A model generated the notes under the pieces. It saw nothing but the letters and a program-made list of their open reading frames with translations, did not search any database and was not told the DNA's origin. This document shows positions 254 through 28,560 of a stretch of 30,861 nucleotides of DNA, piece after piece (position 1 is the first letter of the stretch; each line of letters begins with the position of its first letter). A program made the position numbers and the translations under genes. This stretch comes from a virus: the IMG/VR virus record IMGVR_UViG_3300030116_001210, positions 1 through 30,861 of that record. One strand, written 5' to 3'.

Positions 254-508
254 ATGGAACTAACAGGCTACACAATGTTTTTATTGTGGAATATATTTTT
301 AACATTGGTAGTCGCACCGATACTTTTTAGTATTCGTCAGAATACAGCAGAGATAAAAAGACTTGACATACTTTTAAATAAAACGAGAGAAGAGATGGCT
401 AAAGAATACGTAACTAAAAAAGAACTATCAGATGGTATGGATAGAGTCTTTGATACGCTAGACAAGATTGAAGAAAAACTTGACAAGCTTTTTGAGGTTA
501 AATCATGA
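254..508 (+). CDS. Small membrane protein with coiled-coil tail
   Basis: This is an 84-residue protein. Residues about 5-27 form one hydrophobic membrane segment. The rest is charged and heptad-like (about 30-82, rich in Lys, Glu, Leu and Ile), consistent with a coiled coil outside the membrane. That topology occurs in small phage holins and in inner-membrane spanins, but there is no diagnostic motif. The ATG follows the preceding stop by one base. The TGA overlaps the next ATG (ATGA at 505-508), so the two are probably translationally coupled. It resembles in topology the - strand gene at 17298-17663. Function is unassigned. Confidence 0.7.
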   Translation: MELTGYTMFLLWNIFLTLVVAPILFSIRQNTAEIKRLDILLNKTREEMAKEYVTKKELSDGMDRVFDTLDKIEEKLDKLFEVKS

Positions 509-2529
509 AGAATAAAAAGAAACAAAGACAAAGAAACCTAAAGCAAAGAATTGACTATCGTAATGGTGGTCGTGTTGCATTTAATGCAGGACAGGCTGCT
601 AGAAGAAGACAAGAAGAGGAAAGAGAACAAGAACAAGAGGCTATAGAACAAGCAGAAGCCGCAGCAAAAGATAACAATAATGCTCTTAATGAAAATCAAG
701 AAGCAGAAAAAGAAAGAGAAAAAGATTTTAAAGAAAAAAGAGATGAACGAATAGGAAGAACTGCAGAAGCTGTAGAGGCTGCAACAAAAGGAACAGTTCC
801 TGCTGCTGCAAAAATACCTGATCCAGTTCCAATGGTTGAAGATACTCCAATGGCTACTACAACTATGGCAACACCAACTAAAGTTGTAGGACAGACTGCT
901 GCACCTATAGTTCCAGAAAAAGTTACAGAAGTTCAAGACACATCACAGGTTTCTCCTCCAGAAGAATTAAGAGCAGCCCAAATGGAAGCTGCACAAGTAA
1001 CTGAATCTCCTGAAGTTGTAGCAGCACGTTCTGAAGTAAGAGATGAATCATTAGCAAAAGCTGCTAAAATAGATAGAGTTGCACCTATTGAAGGAGCAGA
1101 AGTAGATATACCTGAAGGAGCTTTGGCAGAAAGAGTTGTTGGAATTATTAGTGAAGGAGCAAAAGCTACAGCAGCTATTAATGCAGGAACTACATTATCT
1201 AGAATTACAAGAGCAAGACAACAATTAAAAAATGCAGGTTTAACAACAGAACAAATTAATGAAATTGGAAATGATCCCGAAGTTTTAGAGGCTCGTCTTG
1301 TTAATTTTACAGAAGAAGAAAGAGGAATTATTGAAGGGTTGCCTAGAGAAGCTTTAGTATCTACGCAACTTAATGGTTTATTAGAAGGTATTGAAGATGG
1401 TAACATACCTCCTTGGGCATCCCCTGCTGTTGCACAAGTAGAACAGATGTTAGCTTCTAGGGGAATAAGTGCTTCTACAGTTGGTAGAGATAATTTATTA
1501 AATGCGATTATTCAAGCAGCATTACCTATTGCACAAAGTAATGCTCAAGCTATACAACAATCTGTTGCACAACAAAAAGATATAGAATTTAAAACAGCAG
1601 AAGCTAATGCACAAAGATTACAACAAACTGCATTAAAAAATGCTGATAATGTTTTTAAAATGAATATGGCTCAGTTTAGTGCCGATCAGCAAACTGCTTT
1701 ATTTAATAGTAAATTTTTACAGACTGTTGGTTTAACAGAGGCAAACTTTGATCAACAATCTATTGTACAAAATGCGGTGCTAATGTCGCAAGCTAACTTA
1801 GCTGAAGCAGATTTTTATCAAAAATCTCAGATACAAAATGCTCAAGCCTTTTTACAAACTGACATGGCTAATTTAAATGCAGCCCAACAATCAAATATAC
1901 TAAAGGCTCAACAAGAACAACAAAGGTTACTTAGTAATCAAGCAGCAGAAAATGCAGCACGAAATGCTAATATGGTTTCAACAAATCAAATGGAACAGTT
2001 TTCTGCTAATTTAAATTTTCAAACTAAACAATTTAATACACAACAATTAAATGCAATGAAACAATTTAATGCTAATGCAAAAAATGCAGCAGAAGCTAGA
2101 GATGCAAATAGAATTGCAGACTTAAATAGGTTTAATGCACAATTATCTACACAAATTGAACAGTTTAATTCTCAACAAGACTTCGCAAGAAATCAGTGGA
2201 ACGCTCAAAATGCTGCTGCAGTTGAAGCTTCAAATGTAGAATGGAGAAGAAAAATAAATACAATTAATACGGCAGCACAAAACCAAGTGAATATGCAGAA
2301 CGCAATGAATGCTTTTAATTTAAGTTCTCAGTCTCTTTCATTTTTATGGCAAGAATTAAGAGATGAAGCTGATTTTGATTTTAGAACTGCAGAAAATGCA
2401 AAAGCTCAAATTACACAACTTAGAGCAACAGCTATTGCTAATGAAGCAGCGTTAGCAGAAAAATCAAGATCAACAATAAATCAAGTTGTTAGTCTTGTTG
2501 AGAGTATGATAAAAGATTACTACACATAA
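505..2529 (+). CDS. Gln/Ala/Asn-rich coiled-coil protein, probable internal virion protein
   Basis: This is a 674-residue protein. Residues 1-20 are very basic, followed by the glycine motif NGGRVAFNAG (20-29) and a charged Glu/Arg/Ala helix (about 30-85). A Pro/Thr/Val-rich stretch follows (about 95-160). From about residue 340 the chain is long, helical and dominated by Gln, Asn, Ala and Phe, with recurring QFN-type units. It has no Cys, signal peptide or membrane segment. The composition and its place at the head of a block ending in a giant ejection-type protein suggest an internal virion or ejection component (inference). A GAGG ribosome site precedes the ATG, which overlaps the upstream stop. 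A similar GGRV motif recurs in the 1980-residue protein. Confidence 0.75.
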   Translation: MKNKKKQRQRNLKQRIDYRNGGRVAFNAGQAARRRQEEEREQEQEAIEQAEAAAKDNNNALNENQEAEKEREKDFKEKRDERIGRTAEAVEAATKGTVPAAAKIPDPVPMVEDTPMATTTMATPTKVVGQTAAPIVPEKVTEVQDTSQVSPPEELRAAQMEAAQVTESPEVVAARSEVRDESLAKAAKIDRVAPIEGAEVDIPEGALAERVVGIISEGAKATAAINAGTTLSRITRARQQLKNAGLTTEQINEIGNDPEVLEARLVNFTEEERGIIEGLPREALVSTQLNGLLEGIEDGNIPPWASPAVAQVEQMLASRGISASTVGRDNLLNAIIQAALPIAQSNAQAIQQSVAQQKDIEFKTAEANAQRLQQTALKNADNVFKMNMAQFSADQQTALFNSKFLQTVGLTEANFDQQSIVQNAVLMSQANLAEADFYQKSQIQNAQAFLQTDMANLNAAQQSNILKAQQEQQRLLSNQAAENAARNANMVSTNQMEQFSANLNFQTKQFNTQQLNAMKQFNANAKNAAEARDANRIADLNRFNAQLSTQIEQFNSQQDFARNQWNAQNAAAVEASNVEWRRKINTINTAAQNQVNMQNAMNAFNLSSQSLSFLWQELRDEADFDFRTAENAKAQITQLRATAIANEAALAEKSRSTINQVVSLVESMIKDYYT

Positions 2530-2546
2530 TTTAATTAGGATACAAA

Positions 2547-3944
2547 ATGGGAAAATTACGAAAAATAGGTAAAAAAATCTGGAATGGTGTCAAGAAAGTT
2601 GGTAAAAAAATTGGTAAAGGATTTAAAAAAGTTTTTGCAGGAGTCGGTAAATTTTTAGGAAAACTTGGACCAATCGGAACTATTGCTATGATGATAGCTA
2701 TGCCTTATATAGGAGCATATTTGTGGCAAGGTTTTGGAACATGGGCAGCAGGATTAAAGGGAACATTTGGAACAGTAATGAAAGGTGTATACAAAGTAGG
2801 TAATAGTGTAATGGGAGTATATAAAAATATTACTGATGCTGTCTATGGAACTTTAAAACAAATTCCCGGAGTTGGTGATGCACTAGAAGGATTTGATAGA
2901 TTTTTAGATAGAACTAGAAGTGCTATGGGATTAGAGTCTGGTTCAATTAGTGTTTTAAATGACAAAGAGTTAAATGGTTGGGTAGGTACAGATGCAGGTG
3001 CAAAAGCAATGGGATACGAAAATGCTGCTGCGTTTAAAGCTGCAAACCCTACTTATTTTACAGCCGAGGGTACTTTAAGTAAAAGTGGTTTAAACTTTGC
3101 TAGAGGTAAAAGCATGGCTTATGAGGCACATCTTAGAGGTAGAGATGTATTTAATAAAGTAGATGGTGAATTTGATTTTAATAGTTACTCAGATAACTTT
3201 AAAACTAATGTTCTAGATACAGATTTTGTTCAAGGAGATATTTCAAGATTTGGAGAATCTTTACAGGGTAAAACTTCAATTACATTTAGAACTGGAAGTC
3301 CTCAAGGGTTTAGACAGTCTACTTTAAGAGAGGATTTAGCAGCCCACAAAAAGACTCTTAGTGCAGAAGAACTTAAAGTATTTAATCAAGATGAGTGGAT
3401 AAAACAATATAAAATTGATAATCCATATCAAAAAGTTTTCTTTGAACAAGATGAAGGTTTGTTTGGACAACGTAAATTAGACCCAAATGATCCTATGTAT
3501 GAAGCTAAATTAGGTGAATTTGGAAACGTGGGAACTTTAACTTTTGAAGGTGTTGGTTCAAGATACACAAGTGACGTTCCAATTGTAGCTAAAGATGGAT
3601 CAGTTATAGGGTATGATACTGTTGAAGGAACTAAATTCGGTAGAGCATTTAAAACAGGATTAAAACAAGGAACTATAACTAGTATTGGAGGTAGTCCAGA
3701 ACAAGAAGTTCAAAGCATGGGATACTCAGCACAAGTTGCAGAACCTCCACAATTAGAAACTGCTTCTACTATGCCTGTGGTTTCATTTACAGCAGGTTCT
3801 AATACTACACAAGGATTAAATTATTTAAATTTACTTTCTGGAAATGCTACTCCTTCTGGAGGACAACTAAGCCAGTTTTATAATAGTGGAGTAGTAATGC
3901 CACACTTATTACCACCAATACCTTTTGGATCATCAGCAACATAA
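2547..3944 (+). CDS. Probable virion/ejection protein with cationic amphipathic N-terminus
   Basis: This is a 465-residue protein. Residues 1-40 are strongly cationic with regularly spaced Lys and hydrophobic residues (repeats of the type KKxGKKIGKGFKKV), ideal for an amphipathic helix. A hydrophobic segment follows (about 41-62, PIGTIAMMIAMPYIGAYLW), then a Gly-rich helical stretch. The remainder (about 130-465) is soluble and mixed. An AGGA ribosome site lies 6 bases before the ATG. Lying between two probable ejection proteins, it may insert into or disturb the host membrane during DNA entry; this is inferred from composition. I recognise no named family. Confidence 0.7.
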   Translation: MGKLRKIGKKIWNGVKKVGKKIGKGFKKVFAGVGKFLGKLGPIGTIAMMIAMPYIGAYLWQGFGTWAAGLKGTFGTVMKGVYKVGNSVMGVYKNITDAVYGTLKQIPGVGDALEGFDRFLDRTRSAMGLESGSISVLNDKELNGWVGTDAGAKAMGYENAAAFKAANPTYFTAEGTLSKSGLNFARGKSMAYEAHLRGRDVFNKVDGEFDFNSYSDNFKTNVLDTDFVQGDISRFGESLQGKTSITFRTGSPQGFRQSTLREDLAAHKKTLSAEELKVFNQDEWIKQYKIDNPYQKVFFEQDEGLFGQRKLDPNDPMYEAKLGEFGNVGTLTFEGVGSRYTSDVPIVAKDGSVIGYDTVEGTKFGRAFKTGLKQGTITSIGGSPEQEVQSMGYSAQVAEPPQLETASTMPVVSFTAGSNTTQGLNYLNLLSGNATPSGGQLSQFYNSGVVMPHLLPPIPFGSSAT

Positions 3945-3960
3945 TAATTAGGAGATTTAA

Positions 3961-4587
3961 ATGCCTATCATAGAAAATATAGCAGAAGATAATTACATAG
4001 ATGATGAAAAGTTAGAGCTTATAGGGAGTGCTTTAAATAAATCAATTCCCGGTCAGTCATTAGTAAAAGACCCCGAACAACCTTATCCTTGGGAAGGTCC
4101 GCCTAAATACACAACTGTTCCTGATGCATCTCTAGCAATTTTTGTAGAAATGACAAAAGAAGAAACTTTTGTACCATTAATACAAGCTTTAAAACAAGGT
4201 TTTCCTGTTACAGACATGGCTAATCTTATTTTATATAGAGGATTTCAAACTGGTCAATTTAGTCCGGACTTAATGTTACTTTTACTTGAACCAGTAATTT
4301 ATATGATTTTAGCTTTAGCAGAAAAAGCAGGTATAGGTGACGTTGTAGGATACGATGGAGAAGAAGATGATGATGAGGGTGAGCCAGAAGAACAAATTGA
4401 TGCATTAAGAAGAATGAAACAATCTTTACAACTTGCAGGTAAGAATGTTTCTGAACAAAGCGTAGCAGATTTACCAGAGTTGAAACAAGAAATTTTGGAG
4501 TTTGAAGTTCCTGAAAATTTACCTAGTTTATTAGGAAGATCAGAACAACCAACAGAAAACAATAGTTTATTAGATAGAGGTACTTAA
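3961..4587 (+). CDS. Conserved virion-associated protein, function unknown
   Basis: This is a 208-residue acidic protein. It has an N-terminal segment with PGQSL and a Pro/Tyr/Trp-rich PYPWEGPP (about 31-48). A helical core with a hydrophobic helix follows (about 100-122, DLMLLLLEPVIYMILALAEKA broken by charges), then a run of acidic residues (EEDDDEGEPEE, about 134-145). The C-terminus is Leu/Glu-rich. An AGGAG site precedes the ATG. I have a memory-based impression that this PGQSL-PYPWE arrangement recurs in marine phage structural modules, but I cannot verify it here. Gene order implies a virion component; no activity can be assigned. Confidence 0.65.
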   Translation: MPIIENIAEDNYIDDEKLELIGSALNKSIPGQSLVKDPEQPYPWEGPPKYTTVPDASLAIFVEMTKEETFVPLIQALKQGFPVTDMANLILYRGFQTGQFSPDLMLLLLEPVIYMILALAEKAGIGDVVGYDGEEDDDEGEPEEQIDALRRMKQSLQLAGKNVSEQSVADLPELKQEILEFEVPENLPSLLGRSEQPTENNSLLDRGT

Positions 4588-6387
4588 ATGGATTCATTAT
4601 TTAAAAGAAGACAAAAGTTATATGAGGGAGGCGTTCCTGATCAACTAGCCTATGGTGCAGATTTAGAACGAGGCATTCGTAAAAGAACAAGAAGAAACGA
4701 TAGGCTTGCACTTGTCAGTAGTTTAATTTCAAGTGTTAATAAAAGCAACATAAATAAATTACAAGAAAATTTAAATAGAATAGAAAATAATTTAGAAGAT
4801 GAAAAAGCTAATCTAACTGCTTTTGGAACTCAATATACTGATCATAAAGCAAGAATGAAAACTTTAGAAGATAAAGGTAATGGAAGTTTAGAACAAGGAA
4901 TGCTTTTGGATATTTTAGAAAAGAATGGTATTAAAGAGTTAAGTAATCTAGATGGAATAAAAGCTAGATATAGTGACTCTTTGTATGCAAAACTTCTTGA
5001 TGAAGCAAAAAGAGCTTCTGATATTATGAGGAAACAAGAAAAGGAATATTCACGTCTAAGAACAAGTTTTGATTCAAATAATCCTGAAGAAGGAGTTGCA
5101 TATGACAATCTTGCTGATAAAGCACTATTTACTAAACCAGTTACTTTATCCCTTTATGAGATTGGTGAAAAACAAAAAACACTTGGTAATAATAATTTTT
5201 TAGATTCGTTACGAGACAGAGCAGGTAAAAATGAATTTGATTTAATAAAAGAAGGAGTAGCAGAAGAAGAAAAATTACGAAGTTTAATTAATGCTACCCA
5301 AGCAGGTAGAGATGCTATAGAAGATTATGTTACTCCTGCTGCATTAATAGATAGTCTTTTAGAAGAACAATCAAATTTAAGTAGAAGTGAGAAAAGTTCA
5401 CAAGCATTAAATGAGGAACTAAATAACTTTGTTGCGGACACTAGAGAGTTTTTAAGTGAAAACAATAGTGCTTACAATAAAGGAGATTACTTTTTTGAAC
5501 AAGCTAATTCAGAGGTTCAAGCTGCAAGACAAAAAAGAAATTATAATTCAGATTATGAACAATTCAAAACAAAATATGGATATACTGACGAACAAATTCG
5601 TAGATTGTATTGGGAGTCTACCACAAAAGTAACAGAAATTAAAAACGAAGTAATAAAAAATCTAATTGTTGGTAGTGATAGAATGGGTGGTTATGCCGAA
5701 GAAGAACTAGCCAACGAATTTAAATCTTCTGTATATGGAATGTTTTCGCAATATGATTATGATATTTCTAGAGTTCCTGAAAGGGAGAGAAGAAGAATAG
5801 TATCAGTTTTGAATTTAAAAGGTTATGAAGATAAACAAATAACTGAGTCTGAATATATGTTTGGTTCTAAACAAATAGAATCAGCTATTGATACTTTATA
5901 TTCAGATGCTTATAAAGATTTATATCAGAGCTTACCTAGTAAAATAGCTTTTAATTTAACTGTACTGCGTGATGCTAAAGATTATCAATCTCAATATAAT
6001 CTTACTGCTGCTCAAGCTTTAGAAGTATCTTTAAATGTACAAAAATTTGGATTAGCTAGTAAAGAAGATGGCTATTCAATTTTGGGTTTAAGGTTTGGAG
6101 ATGATTATAGTTTTCAAGCACAACCCTTTTTACCTTATCAAAATGGTAGACCTATTCAAGAGATTTTATTAAACTATGATAAAAATCAAACTATACCTGA
6201 AGGAACATTTCAAGAATTTTTTAATACAATTAATAAAAATAAAGTTTATTGGTACAGTCCACGATCATTAATGCGACCAGAACCAAAGCTTCATAAAGAC
6301 AACAGTACTATTGAAATTGGTCAATACACTCTAAGATTTAATCATCAGCCAGATGAAGAAGGAAATCACTTTACTATTGTAAATTAA
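4588..6387 (+). CDS. Large helical protein of the virion/ejection block
   Basis: This is a 599-residue, mostly helical protein. The basic N-terminus contains YEGGVPDQLAYG (about 12-23) and a run of Arg/Lys. Long charged coiled-coil-like stretches follow (about 45-165 and 235-300). A more globular C-terminal third is rich in Tyr and Phe (about 380-599). It has no Cys, signal peptide or clear membrane span. The ATG directly abuts the upstream TAA with an AGAGG sequence before it, so translation is likely coupled. It lies just before the giant 1980-residue gene. An ejection-core role like that of T7 gp15 is plausible by position and size, but no homology is visible. Confidence 0.7.
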   Translation: MDSLFKRRQKLYEGGVPDQLAYGADLERGIRKRTRRNDRLALVSSLISSVNKSNINKLQENLNRIENNLEDEKANLTAFGTQYTDHKARMKTLEDKGNGSLEQGMLLDILEKNGIKELSNLDGIKARYSDSLYAKLLDEAKRASDIMRKQEKEYSRLRTSFDSNNPEEGVAYDNLADKALFTKPVTLSLYEIGEKQKTLGNNNFLDSLRDRAGKNEFDLIKEGVAEEEKLRSLINATQAGRDAIEDYVTPAALIDSLLEEQSNLSRSEKSSQALNEELNNFVADTREFLSENNSAYNKGDYFFEQANSEVQAARQKRNYNSDYEQFKTKYGYTDEQIRRLYWESTTKVTEIKNEVIKNLIVGSDRMGGYAEEELANEFKSSVYGMFSQYDYDISRVPERERRRIVSVLNLKGYEDKQITESEYMFGSKQIESAIDTLYSDAYKDLYQSLPSKIAFNLTVLRDAKDYQSQYNLTAAQALEVSLNVQKFGLASKEDGYSILGLRFGDDYSFQAQPFLPYQNGRPIQEILLNYDKNQTIPEGTFQEFFNTINKNKVYWYSPRSLMRPEPKLHKDNSTIEIGQYTLRFNHQPDEEGNHFTIVN

Positions 6388-6389
6388 TT

Positions 6390-9300
6390 ATGCCTATATA
6401 CGAACCTGAAGAAATAAAGATTGAAAACGAAGAACAGGAAACTACACCAAAAAAGAAAGTAGTATTTCCTGTTTATGGAACACAATCTTACGTTGCTCCT
6501 GAAACTATAAATATGTCTGGAACTACAGTTGATCCTATAACTGTTTTTTCTAAAGATGCAACAGGAAAGTACACAGGAACAGTTGAAAAGTTTACAGGTA
6601 ATCCGGATGATCCAAGACCTTTTAATGAACAATATCAAGATTTTAAAAATAAGCAACAAACTTTTGTTGAGCAAAGCAAACAAATTTCTAATTATTTTAA
6701 TCCTGAAGCTTTAACTATAACTGACTTTACAAATAATCCAGAAGTTCAAGTTAGAGCAAATGAAATGGCTTCGTATTTAGATAACAAAACTTTTGAAGAT
6801 GGTCAAAATGCTGCAGATTTTTTTGTTGACTATACAAGAGGTCGTGATTTTAATCTAACAAAAGCAATGGCTGAAGTAGTATTAAACACACGTAGGCAAA
6901 AACGGAAAGACCCCGAGACAAAAAAGTTTTTAGAAAATTATAGTTACTTAATGAATGAGTTTCATGCTGTAAATCCAAATGGTAAATCCAAATATGAAAA
7001 TGTAGGTATTAGAGAAAATACAACTTTAGCCTTAGATATATTTAAAGGTTTATTTACTGATCCTGCTAATCTTCCTATTCTATTTACAGGTGGTACAAGT
7101 CTTCCTGTTAACATTGCTACTCAACAAGCAGCATCATTAACACTAAGACAAGGTATTAAAAATATGGCTGCTAAAAGTTATAATGTATCTTTAGGTAAAG
7201 TTGCTCCTATTTACAACAAAATTCCTAAGATACCTTTAGACCCAAGAAGTTACAAAAGTTCAATTGGTGTTATTGGTACAGAAGGTGCAATATATGGAGG
7301 GTTAGATAGTCATTTATTTCAGAGAAGATATAATTTATTAGGTGTACAAGGGTATGAAGAGTATGATCCTACAGTTACTTTAATGGGAACTGTTTTTGGT
7401 TTTGGAATAGGAACAACTATTGGAGGAGGTACAACTTATTATTTACGTAATTTAAGTAAATCTGCTAAAGAAGAAAAAGCTATACAACAAACAGAATCTG
7501 AACAATTTAAAAGAACTATTTTAGATGAGCCTGATCCAGAAGCAGAAGGACCGAAAATACTTTCAGTAGAAGAGGCTGCAGAATTAAACAGAAAAGAAAG
7601 GGAAATTAATCCTGAATTAAGTAATCCAACTCATGTAGAAGATGTTGCTGACTTTGAAAGACGTGCAGCAGATGAAGAACAGTTACTGCCTGAAAATTTT
7701 GTAAACAGAGTTATTGATGATGATGGAATTATTATAACGGATAAAACAGTTAGTCAAGTTTTAAAAGAAGAATCAAAAAAAGTTAAACCTAAAATAGGCG
7801 GCTTTCAAAAATACAGAGAAGAAGGCGGTACTATTATTTTAGGTAAGTCTATGCGTATGTTTAATAAGCCTACTACGTATAGTAAACAAGTCGGAGAAGT
7901 TAGTAAGTTTTTAGCAGAATCTGGAGTAGATAACGGGGGAACTGCCTATAATTTTTTAAGACTAATAAGAAATGATTCTTTAGAAAAATTTAGTGACAGA
8001 GTAGAAGATGTTGCTTTTGATTACAACTATTTAAACAGACAATATTCTGAGCAAATAGCTTTTAAACAAGGTGAATATTTATCTAGAATTAACGCATTAA
8101 AAATAGAAGCTGAAAGGATTGCTAGAAATGAAGCTAGATATACTAGAGGACCGGGATTATATTTACGTAAAAAAAATTACAAGTTAAGAGAGGGTACAAC
8201 ATTAAATGATGATTTATATATGTTTTTAAATCAAGGTCGTTTTCAAAGAGATGTACCTGAAAGTATTATAAAAATTGGAGGAAAATTTAGAAAGTTATAC
8301 AACGATATAGAAAAAGATGCTATTATGGCAGGATTTGAATTTCATAAAGTTCCTAATTTTTTCCCTCGTTATTTAAAATCATATAAAGTTAGTAGGCTTG
8401 GAAGTAGAGGAAGAACAAGATATGCTCAACAATTAGTTGATGATGGTTATTTTGATAATTTAACAGATGCTAAAGATGCTGTTAAAAGGCAAACAGATAA
8501 GCTTGAAGGTGATTTTGATCCATCCGAAGGTTCTCTTGGTCAAAGAACTTATAAGAATTTAGATACTTATAATATTAGAGATTTATTTGAACAAGATGTA
8601 TATGCCACAACAATGATGTATGCTAATAGTACAGCTAGAAAAATAGTTACGAAAAAAACTTTAGGGTTTGGAGAATTTGAACAAGATCAAAAATGGTTTA
8701 TTCCTATGTTTGGTGGTAAGGATTTAGTTAAAACAACACCAGAAGATGCCTTTGAATTAGTTACAAAAAATTTAATGGCAAGAGGATTTGATGAGTCTTT
8801 TGTAAACGATCCAATGCTAAAAAAATATATTGATGCAAACTTTTTAGCAAGACAAAACATTACTGATACAATCAAATCTCCTGTAAAGGATGAGCAAGGT
8901 AATATAATTTTAGACAGAAATGGAAATCAAGTTTTAGAAGATATTCCTCTCCCTTTAACGGATTTAATTAAAGCAAATAATAAATTACGAAGTAATGCTT
9001 CTGCATTATCAAATAATTTTAAGTTTAATAACTTAACAGTATCTGAAAGAAATCAATTATACGCTCCTTCTTTTCAAGAATCTATTGATAATATAATTTT
9101 AAATAATTTTAAAAGTGGAACATTTACTAGACAAAGTGGTACAGTTATCGGAGAACTTGACCCCGCTAATGTAAATTATTTAGGAATGCGAAGTCCTTCT
9201 GATGAAAAAGCGAGGTTAAAAACACTTGTAGAAAATGTAACTGGTCAATATGGTAGAGGTACTCCTGAAGCTGAAAGGTTTACAGGAACATTACTAGCAC

Positions 9301-12300
9301 TTCAAGCAGCTAATAAACTTTCTATGGCAACTTTTTCTAGTCTGCCAGAGAGTTTTATTCCAATGTTTAAAGCAACTCCTAAACTAGCAGTACAGGCTTT
9401 TCTTAAAACTGTTTTTGAAGAAGGTGGTAAAGCCGCTTCAAATTTACTTGGAGGTACGAAAGGATTGCCTAGTTTAACTAGAGCAGAAATGCATCAACAT
9501 AACAAAATGATGTCAAGTGCAATGAACGAAGCGTTAAATGCTAGGTATGGAGATAATTTAACAGGAATATCACAAAAATTAACTTACGCTTTTTACAGAA
9601 GTATTTTTCTAGATCAATACACTAAATTTGTACAAATATACTCATACAATGCCGGTAAATTACTTATAAGAGAAAATTTATCTAAGTTAGATAAAATGGG
9701 TAAAGAAGCCTTTAATAAAAACAATAAAAAGGCTATGAGATTAAGATCGACTATAAATCAATTAGGAGTTAATGTAGATGAAGGTATACAATGGCATAGA
9801 TCAGGAGGAGCTATTGACGATCCATTTTATCAAAATTTACAGCGAAGTGCTAATCGATTTGTTGATGAAGTAGTCATGATTCCATCTAGAGAAAATGCTC
9901 AAAAGTTTATAGCCTCAAGTCATTGGGCTGCCAGAGTAGCTTTTCAATTATATTCTTACCCTATTGCTTTTACTAATACTGTTTTAAGAAACGCTTTAAG
10001 AGATATGTCTGTTAATAGAGATTTTGGAACAGCAGCTAAACACGCTGCAGGATTAAGTCTAATGTATTATGCGACAGGCTTTACGCAAAGGCTTAAAGGT
10101 GTAGGAGAATTAGATGCTGAACCAATAGATCAAGCATTTGATACACTACATACTATGGGAATTTCTGGACCATTCATGATAGTTGATGATGTTATGAATA
10201 ATATTTCATATGGAAGTAATACACCTAGATCATTTTTTAGATTATTAGGTCCAACTGTCGGAGGTATGCTTTTAGATGCCTTACAAGGAGATACGCCTTT
10301 TAGTTCAGCAGTATTTAAAAATACATTACCATATCGTAATTTAATAAGAAAACTATCTCCTGAACTAGTGTTTGAGATAGAAGAAGGATTAAAAGATTTA
10401 GAAAGAAGAAGATACCTAACTCGGTTTATCGGACTAACTCCACAAGGAGAGCTAACCAGAGATAGAAAATATTTTGAAGCACAAAAAAGATTTGAATTTC
10501 AAAAAGAATTAAAAGACAAAAGAGATCGACAACGTGATTTAAAGGAAGAGCGTTTAAAATTGTTTACAGGTGGTAAAGCCTCAAACTTAACATTTAATCA
10601 ACAGTACCATAGAGATACTATTGCACAAAATCAAGCAATGTTAAACTCTGATAAAAGTGTGACAACTGCAAAAGTAAAAGGTGTAGAATATAAAGGAAAA
10701 ATATATAACTTGCCAAGTTATGATAGAAATGGAGGATTCTTTACAGACGAAGAACTTAGAAAAAAATATGAAGTTGAAATGGAAACTGGTGTTATTAAAG
10801 GATATGATAAAAACTTTGATGGTCCAATAGAAAATCATCCTGCTAATGTTGCTGCAAGAAAAGAACACGAATTAATGATGGCTGAGGCAGAACTCGCAAG
10901 AGGAGCTATTAATCCTAAGTATACTAATACTCCTTCTAAAGAAATTGTTAGTGGATTAAAGGCAGGTATGAGGGCTTTAGGTTTTGCTGATGGAGGTCGT
11001 GTATCTTTAGCTACTGGTGGTAAATTATCCGAGGACTATCCTGTTCCGTTTACTAAATCTAATCCTTCAGAAAGAAAAATTTCTGGTACAAACGAAAGTT
11101 ATGCTGTAATTGCAGGATTGTTTGAAGAAGAAGATAGAGTTCCGGTTAGAGTAGGAGGATTATTAGGAAAACAAGCAGCTAAAAATAAAACGATAAAAAC
11201 AAATTTATTTAAAAAGAAAGCGGGTTGGAAGTGGACAAAAGTTCCTGAAGGTTTTGATCCTAATCCCGATGGTCAGTTTCCGTTAGTGTCTGTAGAAACA
11301 GGAGGCAAACATTTCTATTCTTTACAAGCTGATTTTCCTGAAGGGGTTTTATTAGAAAGATATGCTAAACAAAAAAGTGAACCTAGACTTAGACCAACAA
11401 CAAAAGGAGTTATTAGGACAGGTAATAAAATAGGAGAAATTAGAACGTCAAGCGGTAAACTACATCCAGTATACGATAATATAGTTGCGGTAGATGAAAA
11501 GACTAAAGCTGTTAAAGGATTAAAAGATATGCCTACAAATGTAATGCCGGCTCCGCAAAGATTTTTTGATCCTGAAGATAAAGGGTATAAGCCTTTCTTA
11601 TCTAATTTTGATTACATTAAAGGGGGTAGGTATGTTGAAATTAATAAAGAGGGCAATAAGGATATTACAGGTGCTACACCTAAACAAGCTAGAATATCTA
11701 TAAGCCCTGAAGGTAAAGCATCTTTTACAATATCAAAAGAGTTTTACGATTCTATTTTTCCACAACAAACAATACGACAATTTCATGGTACAAAAAACGA
11801 ATTACCTGAAGTTTTACAAGATTTTGATATGGGCTATCAAGGCTCAGAATCCAACATATATGGGGCAGGATTTTATACAACTTCTGAATCAGGTATTGCT
11901 AAAGGGTATGCTAAAAAAACAGACAGACGTACTGGTGAAACAGCTAAAGGTTTTGTATATGAGATCACAGAAAAAAAAGGTAATAAATTATATAATCTAG
12001 ACTCGAAAGTTCCCGACCAAATTAAAAAAGATATACTTGAACCTGAACTTGATATTTCTACTGAGTTAGAAGATGAATTAGCAGGGTTTTTAGAAGAAAA
12101 TCCAAATGCATCTTTCTTAGAATTATATGATGAGGCTAGAGAGATTTCAAGAGGGTATCAAATACCAACATATGAAGTTCAAGAATTATTTAATGGTTGG
12201 GCTATGTATTTAATAGACCAAGGGTACAACGGACTTAGGCATAAAGGTGGTGTTCTAAGCGGAGGAAAAGAACATGATGTTAAAATTTATTGGAATCCAA

Positions 12301-12332
12301 GTCAATCTTTAAATGTAAAACTTTTAAAATGA
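6390..12332 (+). CDS. Giant ejection-type virion protein with C-terminal ADP-ribosyltransferase-like domain
   Basis: This 1980-residue protein is the largest in the window. The N-terminal ~1400 residues are mostly helical, with hydrophobic stretches (for example about 205-250, 325-350 and 1185-1330) in long charged segments. This suits a phage internal virion protein ejected into the cell, such as T7 gp16, though no lytic transglycosylase motif is visible. A glycine motif, DGGRVSLATGG, lies at 1534-1544. About 250 residues of unknown fold follow. The last ~185 residues carry FHGT (H1799), then GAGFYTT (1825-1831) with an Ala-Lys-x-Tyr helix after it, then KEHDVKIYWNP near the end (E1961). This is the His/Tyr/Glu layout of PARP-like ADP-ribosyltransferases. 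The start follows the upstream stop by two bases with no clear ribosome site. The TGA overlaps the lysozyme ATG. Confidence 0.75.
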   Translation: MPIYEPEEIKIENEEQETTPKKKVVFPVYGTQSYVAPETINMSGTTVDPITVFSKDATGKYTGTVEKFTGNPDDPRPFNEQYQDFKNKQQTFVEQSKQISNYFNPEALTITDFTNNPEVQVRANEMASYLDNKTFEDGQNAADFFVDYTRGRDFNLTKAMAEVVLNTRRQKRKDPETKKFLENYSYLMNEFHAVNPNGKSKYENVGIRENTTLALDIFKGLFTDPANLPILFTGGTSLPVNIATQQAASLTLRQGIKNMAAKSYNVSLGKVAPIYNKIPKIPLDPRSYKSSIGVIGTEGAIYGGLDSHLFQRRYNLLGVQGYEEYDPTVTLMGTVFGFGIGTTIGGGTTYYLRNLSKSAKEEKAIQQTESEQFKRTILDEPDPEAEGPKILSVEEAAELNRKEREINPELSNPTHVEDVADFERRAADEEQLLPENFVNRVIDDDGIIITDKTVSQVLKEESKKVKPKIGGFQKYREEGGTIILGKSMRMFNKPTTYSKQVGEVSKFLAESGVDNGGTAYNFLRLIRNDSLEKFSDRVEDVAFDYNYLNRQYSEQIAFKQGEYLSRINALKIEAERIARNEARYTRGPGLYLRKKNYKLREGTTLNDDLYMFLNQGRFQRDVPESIIKIGGKFRKLYNDIEKDAIMAGFEFHKVPNFFPRYLKSYKVSRLGSRGRTRYAQQLVDDGYFDNLTDAKDAVKRQTDKLEGDFDPSEGSLGQRTYKNLDTYNIRDLFEQDVYATTMMYANSTARKIVTKKTLGFGEFEQDQKWFIPMFGGKDLVKTTPEDAFELVTKNLMARGFDESFVNDPMLKKYIDANFLARQNITDTIKSPVKDEQGNIILDRNGNQVLEDIPLPLTDLIKANNKLRSNASALSNNFKFNNLTVSERNQLYAPSFQESIDNIILNNFKSGTFTRQSGTVIGELDPANVNYLGMRSPSDEKARLKTLVENVTGQYGRGTPEAERFTGTLLALQAANKLSMATFSSLPESFIPMFKATPKLAVQAFLKTVFEEGGKAASNLLGGTKGLPSLTRAEMHQHNKMMSSAMNEALNARYGDNLTGISQKLTYAFYRSIFLDQYTKFVQIYSYNAGKLLIRENLSKLDKMGKEAFNKNNKKAMRLRSTINQLGVNVDEGIQWHRSGGAIDDPFYQNLQRSANRFVDEVVMIPSRENAQKFIASSHWAARVAFQLYSYPIAFTNTVLRNALRDMSVNRDFGTAAKHAAGLSLMYYATGFTQRLKGVGELDAEPIDQAFDTLHTMGISGPFMIVDDVMNNISYGSNTPRSFFRLLGPTVGGMLLDALQGDTPFSSAVFKNTLPYRNLIRKLSPELVFEIEEGLKDLERRRYLTRFIGLTPQGELTRDRKYFEAQKRFEFQKELKDKRDRQRDLKEERLKLFTGGKASNLTFNQQYHRDTIAQNQAMLNSDKSVTTAKVKGVEYKGKIYNLPSYDRNGGFFTDEELRKKYEVEMETGVIKGYDKNFDGPIENHPANVAARKEHELMMAEAELARGAINPKYTNTPSKEIVSGLKAGMRALGFADGGRVSLATGGKLSEDYPVPFTKSNPSERKISGTNESYAVIAGLFEEEDRVPVRVGGLLGKQAAKNKTIKTNLFKKKAGWKWTKVPEGFDPNPDGQFPLVSVETGGKHFYSLQADFPEGVLLERYAKQKSEPRLRPTTKGVIRTGNKIGEIRTSSGKLHPVYDNIVAVDEKTKAVKGLKDMPTNVMPAPQRFFDPEDKGYKPFLSNFDYIKGGRYVEINKEGNKDITGATPKQARISISPEGKASFTISKEFYDSIFPQQTIRQFHGTKNELPEVLQDFDMGYQGSESNIYGAGFYTTSESGIAKGYAKKTDRRTGETAKGFVYEITEKKGNKLYNLDSKVPDQIKKDILEPELDISTELEDELAGFLEENPNASFLELYDEAREISRGYQIPTYEVQELFNGWAMYLIDQGYNGLRHKGGVLSGGKEHDVKIYWNPSQSLNVKLLK

Positions 12333-12790
12333 AATACAACGACTATTTAAATCATTTAGAACATAGAGAAGGTAACGAAGAATGCGTATACCTTGATACA
12401 CTAGGCAAGCCTACCTGTGGTGTTGGGCATCTCTTGACAGAAAGAGAACGTCAAATCTACCAAGTAGGAGATAGAGTTTCTCAAGAGCAGAGGGATGAGT
12501 GGCTTAGGCAAGATGCTGCTAAAGCATGGGATGCTGCTGCTCAACAGATACAAGACTTACGTATTGACGATGCAGACTTTATTATTGCATTAGGTTCAGT
12601 AAACTTTCAATTAGGTACACGATGGATGGATAAGTTTCCATCAGCCTATAGAGCCTTGGCTAGTAAAGATTATGATGAGGCAATACGACAAGTCTCAACT
12701 GGTTCGGGGAGGAATGGTCAATCTAGATGGAAAGAACAAACACCAGTAAGGGTTGAAGATTTTGTAATAGCTATTGACAAATTAAGATAA
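12329..12790 (+). CDS. Endolysin, T4-type lysozyme (GH24)
   Basis: A 153-residue lysozyme that would cleave peptidoglycan between MurNAc and GlcNAc at the end of infection. The N-terminus has E14 in the sequence HREG, D23 in YLDT and T29 in PTCGVGH. The spacings of 9 and 6 equal those of the E11-D20-T26 triad of phage T4 lysozyme. A helical remainder ends with the usual SRWKEQTPVR-type segment. The frame stays open upstream to an ATG at 12290, but the ATG at 12329 overlaps the upstream TGA (ATGA) and starts right at the lysozyme fold, so I chose it. No signal peptide is seen, so release should depend on a holin. Holin-like genes follow. Confidence 0.9.
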   Translation: MKYNDYLNHLEHREGNEECVYLDTLGKPTCGVGHLLTERERQIYQVGDRVSQEQRDEWLRQDAAKAWDAAAQQIQDLRIDDADFIIALGSVNFQLGTRWMDKFPSAYRALASKDYDEAIRQVSTGSGRNGQSRWKEQTPVRVEDFVIAIDKLR

Positions 12791-13728: not shown

Positions 13729-14124
13729 ATGGGAGATCAATATCATCCTTCAGGTAGGTTTGGAGGTGACATGGACAGAAACGAGGTTGAGATTGACCTC
13801 AATAAGTTCATGGCGTTACTCCAAGAAAAGTCTGAATTAAAAGATAGAATCAGAGAACTTGAAGACGAAAAGAATGACAACCCTTATCAAAAGCTAATCT
13901 TTGTTGCAGAAGCTGTTGATAGTTGGAGAATTATTCCTAGAGCCTTTCTTGGTGTGTATATGTATCTATTATACTATACAACATTTTGGTTTATGGCTTT
14001 ACCCGAACCTTCATTTGAGCAGTCAGGTTTAATATCTATTGTAGTTGGTGCGGGTGCAGCATGGTTTGGATTGTATACTAATACATCTAAAGGTAAATCA
14101 GATTTTTCTAAGGGAGGTAAATAG
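13729..14124 (+). CDS. Second holin-like membrane protein with coiled-coil N-terminus
   Basis: This is a 131-residue protein. Residues about 20-52 form a charged coiled coil (Glu, Lys, Leu, Arg). Two hydrophobic spans follow at about 70-92 and 100-118, the second containing ISIVVGAGAAWFGLYTNT. The C-terminus is short, Lys/Gly-rich and hydrophilic. A GGAG site lies 7 bases before the ATG, and the TAG overlaps the GTG of the next gene (TAGTG). Topology and place suggest a holin or a holin partner. An alternative is a membrane-anchored virion assembly factor. Confidence 0.6.
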   Translation: MGDQYHPSGRFGGDMDRNEVEIDLNKFMALLQEKSELKDRIRELEDEKNDNPYQKLIFVAEAVDSWRIIPRAFLGVYMYLLYYTTFWFMALPEPSFEQSGLISIVVGAGAAWFGLYTNTSKGKSDFSKGGK

Positions 14125-15158
14125 TGAGACAGGCATCACTACTTTTAACATTTATTTTATTAACAGGATTTTTACAAGCAGATCAGACAGGAGATTGTAC
14201 GGCAGGTTCGCAGTATTGTGAGCAGAATAGTTTAGAGACTACTAACACTACGACTACAACTAACACAAACACGAATACAAATACTAATACAAATACTAAT
14301 ACTAATACAAATACAAATACTTCAACAAATACAAATACTAATACAAATACTAATACTAATACAAATACAAATACTAGCACGAATACGAACAGCAATACGA
14401 ATGTAAATACAAATACATCTACTGCTACTAATCAGAACACTAACGTAAATACTAATACTTCGACTAGTACAGTAAACTCTAGCGTAGATCAGAATGTAAC
14501 TAACACGACAACAAGCACATCAAATAACACAAACACTAATATAAATACATCAAACTCGACTAGTACAACAAACAATACAAATGTAAATCAATCCACATCA
14601 GAATCAAATGTTACAACAGATAATACAAACACTAACACTAACAACAACAATAGTGTTTCTGATAATACTAATAGAAACATTAATCAGTCTACTTCTACAC
14701 AAAATATAAATCAAAATGTTAAAACTAAAGCTCCTCCCGCTTCTGCTATTGCTCCTAGTATCATGTCTTATTCACAGGACTTATGTACAACAGGAGTATC
14801 AGGGGCTTTTCAAGGGCAGATATTTGGTATCTCAGGCGGGAAGGCAGTACGTGACGAAAACTGTGAACGTCTAAAGCTATCTAAATATCTATATGATACT
14901 GGTATGAAAGTAGCTTCGGTATCTATTTTGTGTCAAGACCCAAGAGTATTCAGAGCAATGGAAATGGCAGGAACACCTTGTCCATATCAAGGTAAGATAG
15001 GTAAAGAGGCTGCTCAAGCGTGGGCAAAAAATAAAAAAGATAGACCAGATTACGACCAATTAGAAGAAAACTATATTAAACATTGCAAGACACAAAGAAA
15101 CTCTAATGGTAAAAAGAAATCAGGAAGAACCTGTGCAAAAGAATTTAGAAACAGTTGA
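14124..15158 (+). CDS. Exported protein with long Asn-Thr repeat and Cys-containing C-terminal domain
   Basis: This 344-residue protein starts at a GTG overlapping the previous stop. Residues 1-19 look like a signal peptide (hydrophobic core LLLTFILLTGF, then LQA before D20). A short Cys-containing stretch follows. Residues about 38-200 are almost pure Asn and Thr with some Ser, starting as (NT)n and becoming less regular. The C-terminal ~140 residues form a different, folded-looking domain with Cys and Gly-rich motifs (DLCTTGVSGAFQ, IFGISGGK, LCQDPRVF, GTPCP). Adjacent late genes are for lysis, so an envelope or virion-surface role is likely. No enzyme motif is visible. Tandem-repeat length probably varies among relatives. 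Confidence 0.75.
   Translation: MRQASLLLTFILLTGFLQADQTGDCTAGSQYCEQNSLETTNTTTTTNTNTNTNTNTNTNTNTNTNTSTNTNTNTNTNTNTNTNTSTNTNSNTNVNTNTSTATNQNTNVNTNTSTSTVNSSVDQNVTNTTTSTSNNTNTNINTSNSTSTTNNTNVNQSTSESNVTTDNTNTNTNNNNSVSDNTNRNINQSTSTQNINQNVKTKAPPASAIAPSIMSYSQDLCTTGVSGAFQGQIFGISGGKAVRDENCERLKLSKYLYDTGMKVASVSILCQDPRVFRAMEMAGTPCPYQGKIGKEAAQAWAKNKKDRPDYDQLEENYIKHCKTQRNSNGKKKSGRTCAKEFRNS
14257..14416 (+). repeat. Hexanucleotide-type tandem repeat encoding (Asn-Thr)n
   Basis: A period-6 repeat of the form AAY-ACN lies in the exported protein gene. The codons vary (AAT or AAC; ACA, ACT or ACG), but blocks such as aatacaaatactaat recur exactly several times. That pattern suggests expansion by slippage or unequal exchange, followed by silent drift. 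Interruptions with Ser begin near 14320 and become common after 14390. Confidence 0.8.
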
Positions 15159-17301
15159 TTCAAATGTTTGGTGTTTTATTGCTAGTTTAATTTTATCAGC
15201 AATCTTTTCATTAGGTGTTCACAACCTTCAAGCAGATTACATCTACGAAGCTAATCAAAACCTTTTTGACCTTACAAATCAGACAGGAACTACCAATCTA
15301 AACTCAGGTGACGATCAGTTATCTGCAGCATTCAATCTAGACAACTCCTTTACCTTTTATGGTAATACCTATGACTCAGCACGTATGGCTACAAACGGCT
15401 GTTTACATTTTGGTTTAGGTACAGGTAATATAAATTACAATAACTATTGTGGAGATTACACACCTGATCCATTACCTCAGTACACCAACACATTATTTCC
15501 GTTTTGGACAGATTTAATTAGAGACAATCAATCGAAAATGCTTGCCAAAAACTTTAGCGATAAAGCAGTCTTTGGTTGGTATGATATGAAAGAGTACAAT
15601 AGAAACTCAGACAACAGCTTTGAAGTTGTGCTTTGGAATAATAATACATTTGAATTTAGATATGGTGCGTTAGATATAATACAGCATGACGTATTAATAG
15701 GAGAACAAGGAAGTTCTTCTCAATATTACCAGTACCTTTTTCATGATGAATGTAACACAGGTACAACTAATGTAGCAGGTACATGTGTTAATAGTAATTG
15801 GAATGGTACAGCTAGTAATAATTTACTAGAGAATGGAGGTAGTTTGTATGGAGATGGATCGGGTAATGCGATAGACTGTAGTAATCCTTTAAACAATACA
15901 GCTTGTACTGGATATGCAGCAGCTTATTTATCACAACAATGTGACATAGACTCTTTGTATGATACGAGTTGTCCTAATTATTGGGAAGCATATGATGATC
16001 AACAATGTGATGAAGACCCGCAGTATGCTCCATTTTGTGCAGGTTATCAGCAAGAACAATCGATAGCCTATTTTGTTGAGGATGATTTTGATTATGGATA
16101 TGAAGAAGAATACTTTGAAGACTTTTTGTTTGAAGAAGAATGGTATGAAGAACCTATAGACGAATATGTGTTTATTGGACCAGACTATGAAGAAGAAGTT
16201 TTTATAGTATTTTTTGATCCGCCTCAAGAAGAAATATATTTTGAAGAGTTATTTATTGAAGAGTCTTACGAAGTTTTACCAGTAATTGAAGAGGAATATA
16301 TTGTAAATGTCGAAAGGATTGATGAGCCTGTTCTATTTGCACATACAAATGAACTGTTAGAAGTATTTAATTTTGAAATAATAAGAGAGGAAATGGAAGA
16401 TGAATTTAGAGATGATGAAAGAAATGAAGAAGAACTTGTCGAAGTTTTGGAAGAAGTTGAAGAGTGGTTTGAAGAAACTACAGATGAACTTGCAAATTTG
16501 GATAGACCCGAAGAACGAGTGGTTATGGAAGAAACCAGAGCAGATCAAGCCGAAGAAGAAGAAATCAGTCAAGAAAACAACAACCAAGAAAAAAGCTCAG
16601 TAAGGGTATCTGCACTAGACGTTGTAGCTAGTACTATACAGACTGCTAGGAATAGTGTTTCTAGTTCCATACGTGGCTCTGTTGGAACGAATAGATCATC
16701 ATCCTTGTCGGCACTTAACAATTCTGCTAGTGGCTCGTCAGGCTCGTCTATTTCATCTAGTGGCGGGATAAGTACGACAAACTCGCCTAGTATATCTGAT
16801 CAAGTTGTATCGGCATCAGCACAAAACCAACAAGTTTTAGATATGGGTTCGGATGTAGGTACATCTTCCGCTAATGTGACCATCACTTATATGCCTGATC
16901 TAGAAGGAACTCCACAAGTTGCAATGGCAGATGTTCAGGTCCAAGATATGCAGGGAGAGATAGACACTGCAATATCAGGAGTTATGACAGTTAGTGAAGC
17001 CGATCAAATAGCAGAGCAGATTGTTGCTCAAAACATTCAGGAACAACAAGAGCAAGCGGAAGTAGAGCAGCAAGAAACTGGACAATACTCCGATGAGTCT
17101 ACCCTAGTAGCTTATCTAGGGTACGTTGTAGGTTTTGACTCTTATATAAATTTAGATATACCGCAACAAGAAACTTGGTACGAACCTAGAGCAATATATA
17201 CTGATGTAATATTAGATGATAACAACCAAGCTTTTTCTAGTTTAGCTAACGTAAATATAAACCGACTAGCTGAATTACAAAACCTGCAACCTAATCTTTA
17301 G
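15106..17301 (+). CDS. Exported nidogen-like protein with Cys repeats and long acidic region
   Basis: This is a 731-residue protein. A hydrophobic signal or anchor lies at about 22-40. Residues about 70-215 resemble a nidogen (NIDO)-type domain: FTFYGNTYDSARMATNGCLHFG, a TLFPFWTDL segment, then FEVVLWNNNTFEFRYG. Six Cys (258, 267, 279, 289, 301, 311) follow, spaced 9-12 residues, in a repeat of about 22 residues. Residues about 324-505 are extremely rich in Glu, Asp, Tyr and Phe. A Ser-rich linker (about 508-580) and a C-terminal domain complete it. The ATG overlaps the upstream gene by 53 bases and has no ribosome site. A GTG at 15133, preceded by AGGAAG, may be the true start. Likely surface or adhesion role; the nidogen call is from motif memory. 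Confidence 0.7.
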   Translation: MVKRNQEEPVQKNLETVDSNVWCFIASLILSAIFSLGVHNLQADYIYEANQNLFDLTNQTGTTNLNSGDDQLSAAFNLDNSFTFYGNTYDSARMATNGCLHFGLGTGNINYNNYCGDYTPDPLPQYTNTLFPFWTDLIRDNQSKMLAKNFSDKAVFGWYDMKEYNRNSDNSFEVVLWNNNTFEFRYGALDIIQHDVLIGEQGSSSQYYQYLFHDECNTGTTNVAGTCVNSNWNGTASNNLLENGGSLYGDGSGNAIDCSNPLNNTACTGYAAAYLSQQCDIDSLYDTSCPNYWEAYDDQQCDEDPQYAPFCAGYQQEQSIAYFVEDDFDYGYEEEYFEDFLFEEEWYEEPIDEYVFIGPDYEEEVFIVFFDPPQEEIYFEELFIEESYEVLPVIEEEYIVNVERIDEPVLFAHTNELLEVFNFEIIREEMEDEFRDDERNEEELVEVLEEVEEWFEETTDELANLDRPEERVVMEETRADQAEEEEISQENNNQEKSSVRVSALDVVASTIQTARNSVSSSIRGSVGTNRSSSLSALNNSASGSSGSSISSSGGISTTNSPSISDQVVSASAQNQQVLDMGSDVGTSSANVTITYMPDLEGTPQVAMADVQVQDMQGEIDTAISGVMTVSEADQIAEQIVAQNIQEQQEQAEVEQQETGQYSDESTLVAYLGYVVGFDSYINLDIPQQETWYEPRAIYTDVILDDNNQAFSSLANVNINRLAELQNLQPNL

Positions 17302-28004: not shown

Positions 28005-28178
28005 TCAAGCCCTCGATTTAATTTTTTTAAATTTCTTTCTCCACTTGGAGCGTTTGAATTGAGTCATTGTTCCATCTGCATATCTGATCTCAATGATGCC
28101 ATTATTAACATGTAAAGATGTCACTTGTTCTTTGTCAAGTATATCCTTGTAAAGTTTTTTAACATCATACTGAGTCAT
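28005..28178 (-). CDS. Small basic hypothetical protein
   Basis: This is a 57-residue protein beginning MTQYDVKKLYKDIL. It ends in a very basic tail (FKRSKWRKKFKKIKSRA) that could bind nucleic acid. An ATG at 28214 is also in frame, but it overlaps the upstream gene by 50 bases. The ATG at 28178 overlaps it by 14, and I prefer that one. The two starts cannot be separated firmly, because a GGAAG also lies before the longer one. Function unknown. Confidence 0.55.
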   Translation of the reverse strand: MTQYDVKKLYKDILDKEQVTSLHVNNGIIEIRYADGTMTQFKRSKWRKKFKKIKSRA

Positions 28179-28560
28179 TATGTGTTCCGTCTGTTTCTCT
28201 GTAGTTTTCATCATCTACTACTTCCACTCCATACTCTAAGTCTCCAAAGTCTATCATTTCTTGTAGTCTTTTGGTTACATTATCCCATGTAGGATGAAAT
28301 GGAAACGCTATGGGTTCAATGTGGACCACACATATAGTTTCCCTGCCTAGCCATTCACTAATTCTTTCTAATCCAAAACGTCTGAACTCTTGTTCTTCTG
28401 TTCTTTCATCAGTTCCTTCAAAGCCGGTGAAGTCTCCATAAAATCCCTTTGGTTTAATGACTCTAATAGTTTCATGTCCACCATATTTAAAGGATACCGA
28501 TTTATTTTCTTTAATCGCCTCTATTACGTCTAATGTTATTTGTGATGTATCTAATGTCAT
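28165..28560 (-). CDS. WYL-like domain protein
   Basis: This is a 131-residue protein. Residues about 16-71 read as a compact beta-barrel: VSFKYGG, then IRVIKPKGFYGDF, then FRRFGLERISEW. The order (FxY, Arg-x-x-x-Pro, then F-R-x-F-x-x-x-R-I) is that of the WYL domain, a small ligand-sensing domain found in regulators and in phage-defence proteins. There is no DNA-binding helix, and the C-terminus is acidic. A strong GGAGG precedes the ATG. A regulator or anti-defence role is possible, but the match is by eye only. Confidence 0.5.
   Translation of the reverse strand: MTLDTSQITLDVIEAIKENKSVSFKYGGHETIRVIKPKGFYGDFTGFEGTDERTEEQEFRRFGLERISEWLGRETICVVHIEPIAFPFHPTWDNVTKRLQEMIDFGDLEYGVEVVDDENYRETDGTHNDSV

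What the first reader, a model, noticed from the sequence alone, without database searches (positions are those of the whole stretch)
11760..12332. ADP-ribosyltransferase-like domain fused to the end of a giant ejection-type protein
The C-terminal ~185 residues of the 1980-residue protein carry FHGT (H1799), GAGFYTT (1825-1831) with an Ala-Lys-x-Tyr helix, and a final KEHDVKIYWNP (E1961), which is the H-Y-E layout of PARP-like ADP-ribosyltransferases. Known phage examples (T4 Alt) are injected with DNA and modify host proteins. Here the domain seems to ride on a protein that would be ejected at infection, so it could modify the host RNA polymerase, ribosome or defence proteins within the first minute.
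Basis: partly seen in the sequence, partly recalled or inferred. Interest (0 to 1): 0.75.

Follow-up and report, generated by a model that had tools for sequence, protein, structure and literature searches.

The report
ADP-ribosyltransferase on phage ejection protein
A marine virus of bacteria carries an enzyme domain that can probably attach ADP-ribose to host molecules, fused to the end of a very large protein that the virus most likely injects with its DNA; the kind of enzyme and the kind of carrier are both known, but the domain sits in a slot where close relatives carry something else or nothing.

Summary
The last ~185 residues of the 1980-aa ORF (6390-12332) are an ADP-ribosyltransferase (ART) domain. 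A family profile built without the window and its nearest relatives matches them at 111 bits (E 4e-34; best of 1949 scored shuffles 10 bits). A confident AlphaFold2 model (pLDDT 88.7) has the ART fold. Its best solved match is a C-terminal domain of the cyanophage A4 pre-ejectosome protein (Z 12.3), then diphtheria-group toxin and tankyrase ARTs (Z 7-8). The domain belongs with ART-PolyVal (H-Y-D type). It is not PARP-type H-Y-E: E1961 is not conserved, and D1963 is the better candidate for the acid. It is not T4 Alt-like (R-S-E). The carrier belongs to a podoviral virion-protein family, ends a block syntenic with an isolated podovirus, and precedes a lysozyme gene. Close relatives hold the ART, nothing, or a different tail there, so the gene's end behaves like an exchangeable effector slot. 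Most likely mechanism: the protein is ejected, its C-terminus reaches the cytoplasm, and the ART modifies a host molecule early. Virion presence, ejection, catalysis and target are inferred. New member of a known kind.

The parts
6390..12332 (+). Giant ORF, 1980 aa: predicted ejection (internal virion) protein with C-terminal ART domain
   Evidence: PHROG 7348 E 2.4e-26 and 6958 'virion structural protein' E 3.8e-15 over residues 933-1226; homologue in podovirus Slicky01 E 9e-22
6390..10529 (+). Residues 1-1380: conserved core shared with Slicky01 and LUZ24-like virion proteins
   Evidence: core profile hits L097 and L214 (E 2e-8); 54-75% identity to L005-L008
10530..11129 (+). Residues 1381-1580: linker module, shorter in L005-L008, shared at about 72% identity with L009/L010, whose giant protein is otherwise unrelated
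11130..11768 (+). Residues 1581-1793: C-terminal domain kept in all close relatives (84-94% identity), unknown fold
11769..12329 (+). Residues 1794-1980: ADP-ribosyltransferase domain, present in L001, L002, L006; absent from L005, L008; replaced in L007
11784..11786 (+). H1799, strand-1 histidine (HGT motif)
   Evidence: 36/36 in A7, partly by selection; strand E10-14 of the model
11874..11876 (+). Y1829, strand-2 tyrosine (GAGFYTT)
   Evidence: 36/36, partly by selection; strand E41-44 of the model
11907..11909 (+). Y1840, second nicotinamide-pocket tyrosine, 11 residues after Y1829 as in PARPs (own knowledge)
   Evidence: 36/36, not used in the selection
12228..12230 (+). N1947 of GYNGLRHKGG; D in 32 of 36 relatives (GYDG)
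12270..12278 (+).
12329..12332 (+). ATGA overlap: giant stop TGA with lysozyme start ATG (translational coupling)
12329..12790 (+). Phage lysozyme gene (PF00959 E 1.9e-9)
505..2529 (+). Upstream gene of the same block, homologue of Slicky01 WGH49919 (E 3e-80)
2547..3944 (+). Homologue of Slicky01 WGH49920 (E 1e-6); basic amphipathic N-terminus with hydrophobic stretch, candidate ejection protein
3961..4587 (+). Homologue of Slicky01 WGH49921 (E 4e-28)
4588..6387 (+). 599-aa protein in the position of Slicky01 WGH49922 (no detectable similarity)

Best explanation
The giant protein is the large ejection (internal virion) protein of a marine podovirus. Its C-terminus carries an ART-PolyVal-type (H-Y-D) ADP-ribosyltransferase as an optional effector. 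On infection the protein leaves the head with the DNA and builds the conduit across the envelope, leaving its C-terminal end in the cytoplasm. There the domain binds NAD+ with H1799, Y1829 and Y1840 and transfers ADP-ribose to a host macromolecule before any phage gene is expressed. Shown by sequence and model: the ART fold, the H/Y/Y residues, fusion to a virion-protein family, the optional slot, and purifying selection. Inferred: presence in the virion, ejection, catalysis, target.
For: ART identity: nearly all of the best ~50 PDB sequence matches of the family profile are ARTs/PARPs, E 0.009-0.2; 27 of 36 aligned members match PF18760. Fold: model pLDDT 88.7, pTM 0.84; PDB 9k3a_B, cyanophage A4 pre-ejectosome, Foldseek E 7.7e-5 and Z 12.3 over 166 residues; toxin and tankyrase ARTs Z 7-8. 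The matching stretch of Anabaena phage A-4L ORF27 (1717 aa; taken to be the same phage as A4) holds HGT and GxGxY and scores 17-22 bits. Carrier: PHROG 6958/7348; LUZ24-like 'particle protein' is PHROG 6958 itself and lies in a block with a protein matching 'DNA ejection protein'; synteny with podovirus Slicky01. Slot: four states before the same ATGA junction. Selection. T7 gp16 C-terminal domain is described as protruding into the host cytoplasm (PMC8954989).
Against: No virion proteomics. The record is a metagenomic fragment without visible capsid, portal or terminase genes. The catalytic acid is uncertain: N at the GY[D]G position, and D1963 is D in only 4 of 36 relatives. The A4 domain lacks the second Tyr, so such domains may persist without catalysis. 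Structural Z values of 7-8 to toxins and PARPs are middling alone. The Slicky01 homologue lacks the C-terminal ~700 residues, so the ART is not needed for ejection.
Confidence: 0.7

Rival explanations
1. The ART fold is a catalytically weak or dead structural or binding module of the ejectosome, kept for packing in the head or for binding host factors or NAD, not for transfer.
For: The A4 domain, solved in a pre-ejectosome, keeps H and Y but has Asn in place of the second Tyr and lacks the HxGG/H motifs. The GYDG Asp is Asn in the window.
Against: H1799, Y1829, Y1840, H1951 and H1962 are all kept and unchanged between the window and L006 under purifying selection. A purely structural part would not be missing from close relatives.
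Confidence: 0.2
2. The domain acts late, inside the producing cell (for example on rival phages, or as an NADase at the end of infection), and is not injected.
For: The gene lies in the late block next to lysozyme and a possible holin gene; translational coupling to lysozyme (ATGA).
Against: The carrier is of a virion-protein family, and an ART-fold domain on such a protein has been solved inside an assembled pre-ejectosome.
Confidence: 0.1
3. PARP-like H-Y-E enzyme with E1961 as catalytic glutamate, as first proposed.
For: E1961 lies next to the last core strand; E or D occurs at that column in 9 of 36 relatives.
Against: R, P, K, Q, L or A in most of the other relatives. End-point arithmetic of the structural alignments places D1963, two residues on, at the toxins' glutamate.
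Confidence: 0.07

Closest known systems
Cyanophage A4 (Anabaena phage A-4L) pre-ejectosome protein ORF27, PDB 9k3a chain B (Hou et al. 2025, PNAS 122:e2423403122, seen only as a citation in PMC12810830)
   Same: Podovirus, giant ejectosome protein (1717 aa), ART-fold domain near the C-terminus (residues 1418-1602) with HGT and GxGxY
   Different: No sequence similarity in the core was found; the A4 domain lacks the second Tyr and the HxGG/H motifs; A4 has ~115 further residues after it; that ORF27 of A-4L is 9k3a_B is inferred from matching residue numbers
ART-PolyVal, Pfam PF18760 (Tox-ART-HYD2 clade; Iyer et al. 2017, PMC5512222), prototype in Roseovarius Plymouth podovirus 1 vRNAP
   Same: H in strand 1, Y in strand 2, full-length profile match, fused into a giant phage protein beside virion genes
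   Different: Carrier has no N4-like RNA polymerase, metallopeptidase or other recognised effector; N instead of D in GY[D]G; Pfam score under the curated cut-off
DUF3990, PF13151
   Same: Best single Pfam match (E 1.2e-5), N-terminal half only
   Different: Match stops after strand 3; C-terminal motifs follow ART-PolyVal
T4 Alt (R-S-E clade)
   Same: Virion-borne ART injected with DNA (PMC5512222)
   Different: Different active-site clade and carrier
Podoviral large virion/ejection proteins: PHROG 6958 (LUZ24-like), Slicky01 WGH49923, T7 gp16 by analogy
   Same: Core homology and gene order
   Different: These lack the C-terminal ~700 residues with the ART (Slicky01, Lyrsu01)

Membership tests
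ART-PolyVal / Tox-ART-HYD2 | ART fold | tested here: met
   AF2 pLDDT 88.7; 9k3a_B Z 12.3; toxin/PARP ARTs Z 7-8, and listed matches are nearly all ARTs
ART-PolyVal / Tox-ART-HYD2 | Histidine in strand 1 | tested here: met
   H1799, model strand 10-14
ART-PolyVal / Tox-ART-HYD2 | Tyrosine in strand 2 | tested here: met
   Y1829, model strand 41-44
ART-PolyVal / Tox-ART-HYD2 | Aspartate in strand 5 | tested here: inconclusive
   If strand 5 is the strand of the toxins' glutamate, D1963 fits (range end points; A4 also has D there). If it is the GYDG strand, the window has N1947
ART-PolyVal / Tox-ART-HYD2 | Family-wide sequence similarity | tested here: met
   Profile of 33 other members: 111 bits, E 4e-34; 27 of 36 members match PF18760 at E <= 0.001. 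The window's own PF18760 score is 18.1 bits, under the cut-off of 31.2
PARP-type H-Y-E ART | Catalytic glutamate at the start of the last core strand | tested here: not met
   E1961 is not at the conserved position; the column is R/E/P/K/D/Q
T4 Alt/ModA/ModB (R-S-E) | R-S-E active site | tested here: not met
   HGT and GxGxY in place of the R and S motifs
Podoviral ejection (internal virion) protein | Homology of the core to virion structural proteins | tested here: met
   PHROG 7348 E 2.4e-26, 6958 E 3.8e-15; Lyrsu01 particle protein is PHROG 6958
Podoviral ejection (internal virion) protein | Position in the structural gene block | tested here: met
   Collinear with Slicky01 WGH49919-49923
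Podoviral ejection (internal virion) protein | Present in the virion and ejected | not testable with these tools
   Needs virion proteomics and infection experiments
Polyvalent protein (Iyer et al. 2017) | Two or more effector domains in one polypeptide | tested here: inconclusive
   Only the ART is recognised; residues 1381-1793 are unassigned

The most novel reading that the evidence does not exclude
The 3' end of this ejection-protein gene is an exchangeable cargo port. Different effectors (ART, zincin-like peptidase, an unknown domain) or none are plugged in just before a fixed ATGA junction with the lysozyme gene, so the ejectosome works as a general protein-delivery vehicle in an uncultured marine podovirus group.
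Probability: 0.4. Interest if true: 0.6.

Novelty: new member of a known kind. Interest (0 to 1): 0.42.

Why it matters
It adds a clear case in which a host-modifying enzyme is physically part of the DNA-ejection machine of a short-tailed phage. Together with the A4 structure it suggests that ART-fold domains on ejection proteins are recurrent. The presence/absence polymorphism among close relatives makes the function testable by comparing related phages with and without the domain.

Tried and rejected
A first AF2 run on 5 sequences was poor (pLDDT 53) and its Foldseek matches were meaningless. It was superseded by the 36-sequence alignment. tblastn of the domain against annotated phages and plasmids found nothing even at E 10, so all sequence relatives come from IMG/VR. 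Two scans of genome contigs gave no relative. The pattern GAGFYTT alone is not diagnostic: most IMG/VR hits were unrelated proteins. No PDB relative of the carrier core was found by sequence. PADLOC gave weak matches of the domain to PDC-M13 candidate defence proteins (E 2.7e-5), read as shared ART-like sequence and not as a defence system. Conservation of HG[TS], GxGxYxT, GY[DN]G and HxGG in A7 is inflated because these motifs were used to collect the rows. Only Y1840, A1837, H1962 and V1964 are independent of the selection. The assignment of D1963 uses only the end points of the VIA-align ranges, assumes no gap in the last 17 residues, and is an inference. The A4 paper itself was not in the library, so whether its authors call the domain an ART is not known here.

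Full report
The window is a complete IMG/VR virus record of 30,861 bases, a linear fragment with G+C of 34%. The left half, on the plus strand, carries a late structural block, lysozyme and a possible holin. The right half, on the minus strand, carries ribonucleotide reductase, a PolA-type DNA polymerase and a DnaB-type helicase-primase. The polymerase is closest to Pelagibacter phages HTVC103P/104P/115P (50% identity), so a marine podovirus is likely. No capsid, portal or terminase gene was identified in the fragment.

The ORF and all motif positions are as stated. Pfam alone gives only sub-threshold matches to DUF3990 and ART-PolyVal. Relatives collected from IMG/VR make the case. L001, L002 and L006 carry the same domain (91%). 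L025 carries a 30%-identical version in a giant ORF downstream of terminase-like and portal-like ORFs. A motif scan brought dozens of further domains. Most ART matches in the fetched loci (89 of 118, duplicates included) lie in ORFs of 900 aa or more. 27 of 36 aligned members match PF18760. A profile made without the window, L006 and L025 finds this domain, and nothing else in the six frames of the window, at 111 bits.

Structure. With the 36-sequence alignment AlphaFold2 gives pLDDT 88.7 and pTM 0.84. Foldseek and VIA-align put first the cyanophage A4 pre-ejectosome protein (9k3a_B residues 1418-1602, E 7.7e-5, Z 12.3, 166 residues). Catalytic domains of ART toxins and tankyrases follow at Z 7-8. 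In the library of viral models many matches are named PolyVal ADP-ribosyltransferase, and giant proteins of cyanopodoviruses (Pf-WMP3, Arthronema virus TR020) also appear. A profile search of PDB sequences returns almost only ARTs. In Anabaena phage A-4L the 1717-aa ORF27 has HGT and GSGTY in exactly the range aligned. An ART-fold domain therefore rides on an ejectosome protein in an assembled particle that has already been solved.

Active site. H1799 and Y1829 are in strands 1 and 2. Y1840 follows 11 residues after Y1829, as in PARPs (own knowledge), and is invariant in all 36 rows without having been used for selection. E1961 is not conserved. H1962 is invariant. D1963 lies 17 residues before the last aligned residue, as do the catalytic glutamates of three ART toxins in the VIA-align ranges (plus own knowledge of the residue numbers), and A4 has Asp at the same place. 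D1963 is therefore the likeliest counterpart of the acid, which gives H-Y-D, the configuration published for polyvalent ARTs (PMC5512222). The caveats are that most relatives have R or N there, and that the window has N in the otherwise common GYDG motif. Activity is likely but not certain.

Carrier. Residues 933-1226 match PHROG 7348 and PHROG 6958 (virion structural protein). The LUZ24-like particle protein of Pseudomonas phage Lyrsu01 is PHROG 6958 itself, and a neighbouring protein in its block matches a DNA ejection protein family. The core profile reaches Lyrsu01 at E 2e-8. The gene ends a five-gene block collinear with podovirus Slicky01, whose homologue lacks the C-terminal ~700 residues. 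A review of T7-type ejection proteins places the gp16 C-terminal domain in the host cytoplasm after ejection (PMC8954989). A C-terminal ART would thus be on the right side of the membrane. Transfer of that topology to this protein is an inference.

The slot. Between a conserved stretch (residues 1581-1793) and an invariant ATGAAATACAA junction with the lysozyme gene, relatives differ. The ART is in the window, L001, L002 and L006. L005 and L008 have nothing. L007 has an unrelated ~130-aa tail. L010 (and L009) has a HExxH-bearing end, on a giant protein that shares only residues 1381-1580 with the window. The window and L006 are 55-73% identical in the core but 91-94% in the last 400 residues, which points to recombination of the 3' end. 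No second ART was found in the held contigs of relatives that lack it.

Conclusion. The domain is an ART-PolyVal-type ADP-ribosyltransferase, fused as an optional C-terminal effector to a podoviral ejection protein, and probably delivered at infection. The principle is known from polyvalent proteins, from T4 Alt by analogy, and from the A4 pre-ejectosome. The slot-like variation is the most interesting part. Virion presence, ejection, catalysis and target are not shown.

Noticed in passing
window 12323-12332: A T_TTA_AAA heptamer sits directly before the giant's TGA in all ART-bearing loci (window, L001, L002, L006) but not in L005, L007, L008, L010; a -1 slip would run in frame into the lysozyme. 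May be chance in AT-rich DNA.
   Followed up: partly
L009:9301-10092 and L010 end of first ORF: A different giant protein ends at the same lysozyme junction with a HEIIHR (HExxH) segment weakly like Peptidase_M91 (E 0.057).
   Followed up: partly
L007 C-terminal ~130 aa (up to 14846): Unrelated tail in the slot where the window has the ART; no family match.
   Followed up: partly
window 10530-11129: Module of residues 1381-1580 shared at about 72% identity with L009/L010, whose giant protein is otherwise unrelated: mosaic exchange.
   Followed up: partly
window ~560-600 and ~11090-11130: A GGRV-type motif (NGGRVAFNAG, DGGRVSLATGGK) recurs in the 674-aa protein, the giant protein and L009; meaning unknown.
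   Followed up: no
window 14124-17301: Two large overlapping ORFs (344 and 731 aa) between the lysis genes and the RNR genes; the first starts like a signal peptide followed by a TNTNTN repeat; no Pfam match, and a PHROG of unknown function for the first.
   Followed up: no
L014, L019, L050, L052, L064: Giant phage proteins with YRG...GAGFYTT...KEYVTF, which look like a second (R-type) ART family found by the GAGFYTT scan.
   Followed up: no
window 28165-28560 (-): Small protein with a weak match to WYL-domain models (PADLOC E 0.002).
   Followed up: no
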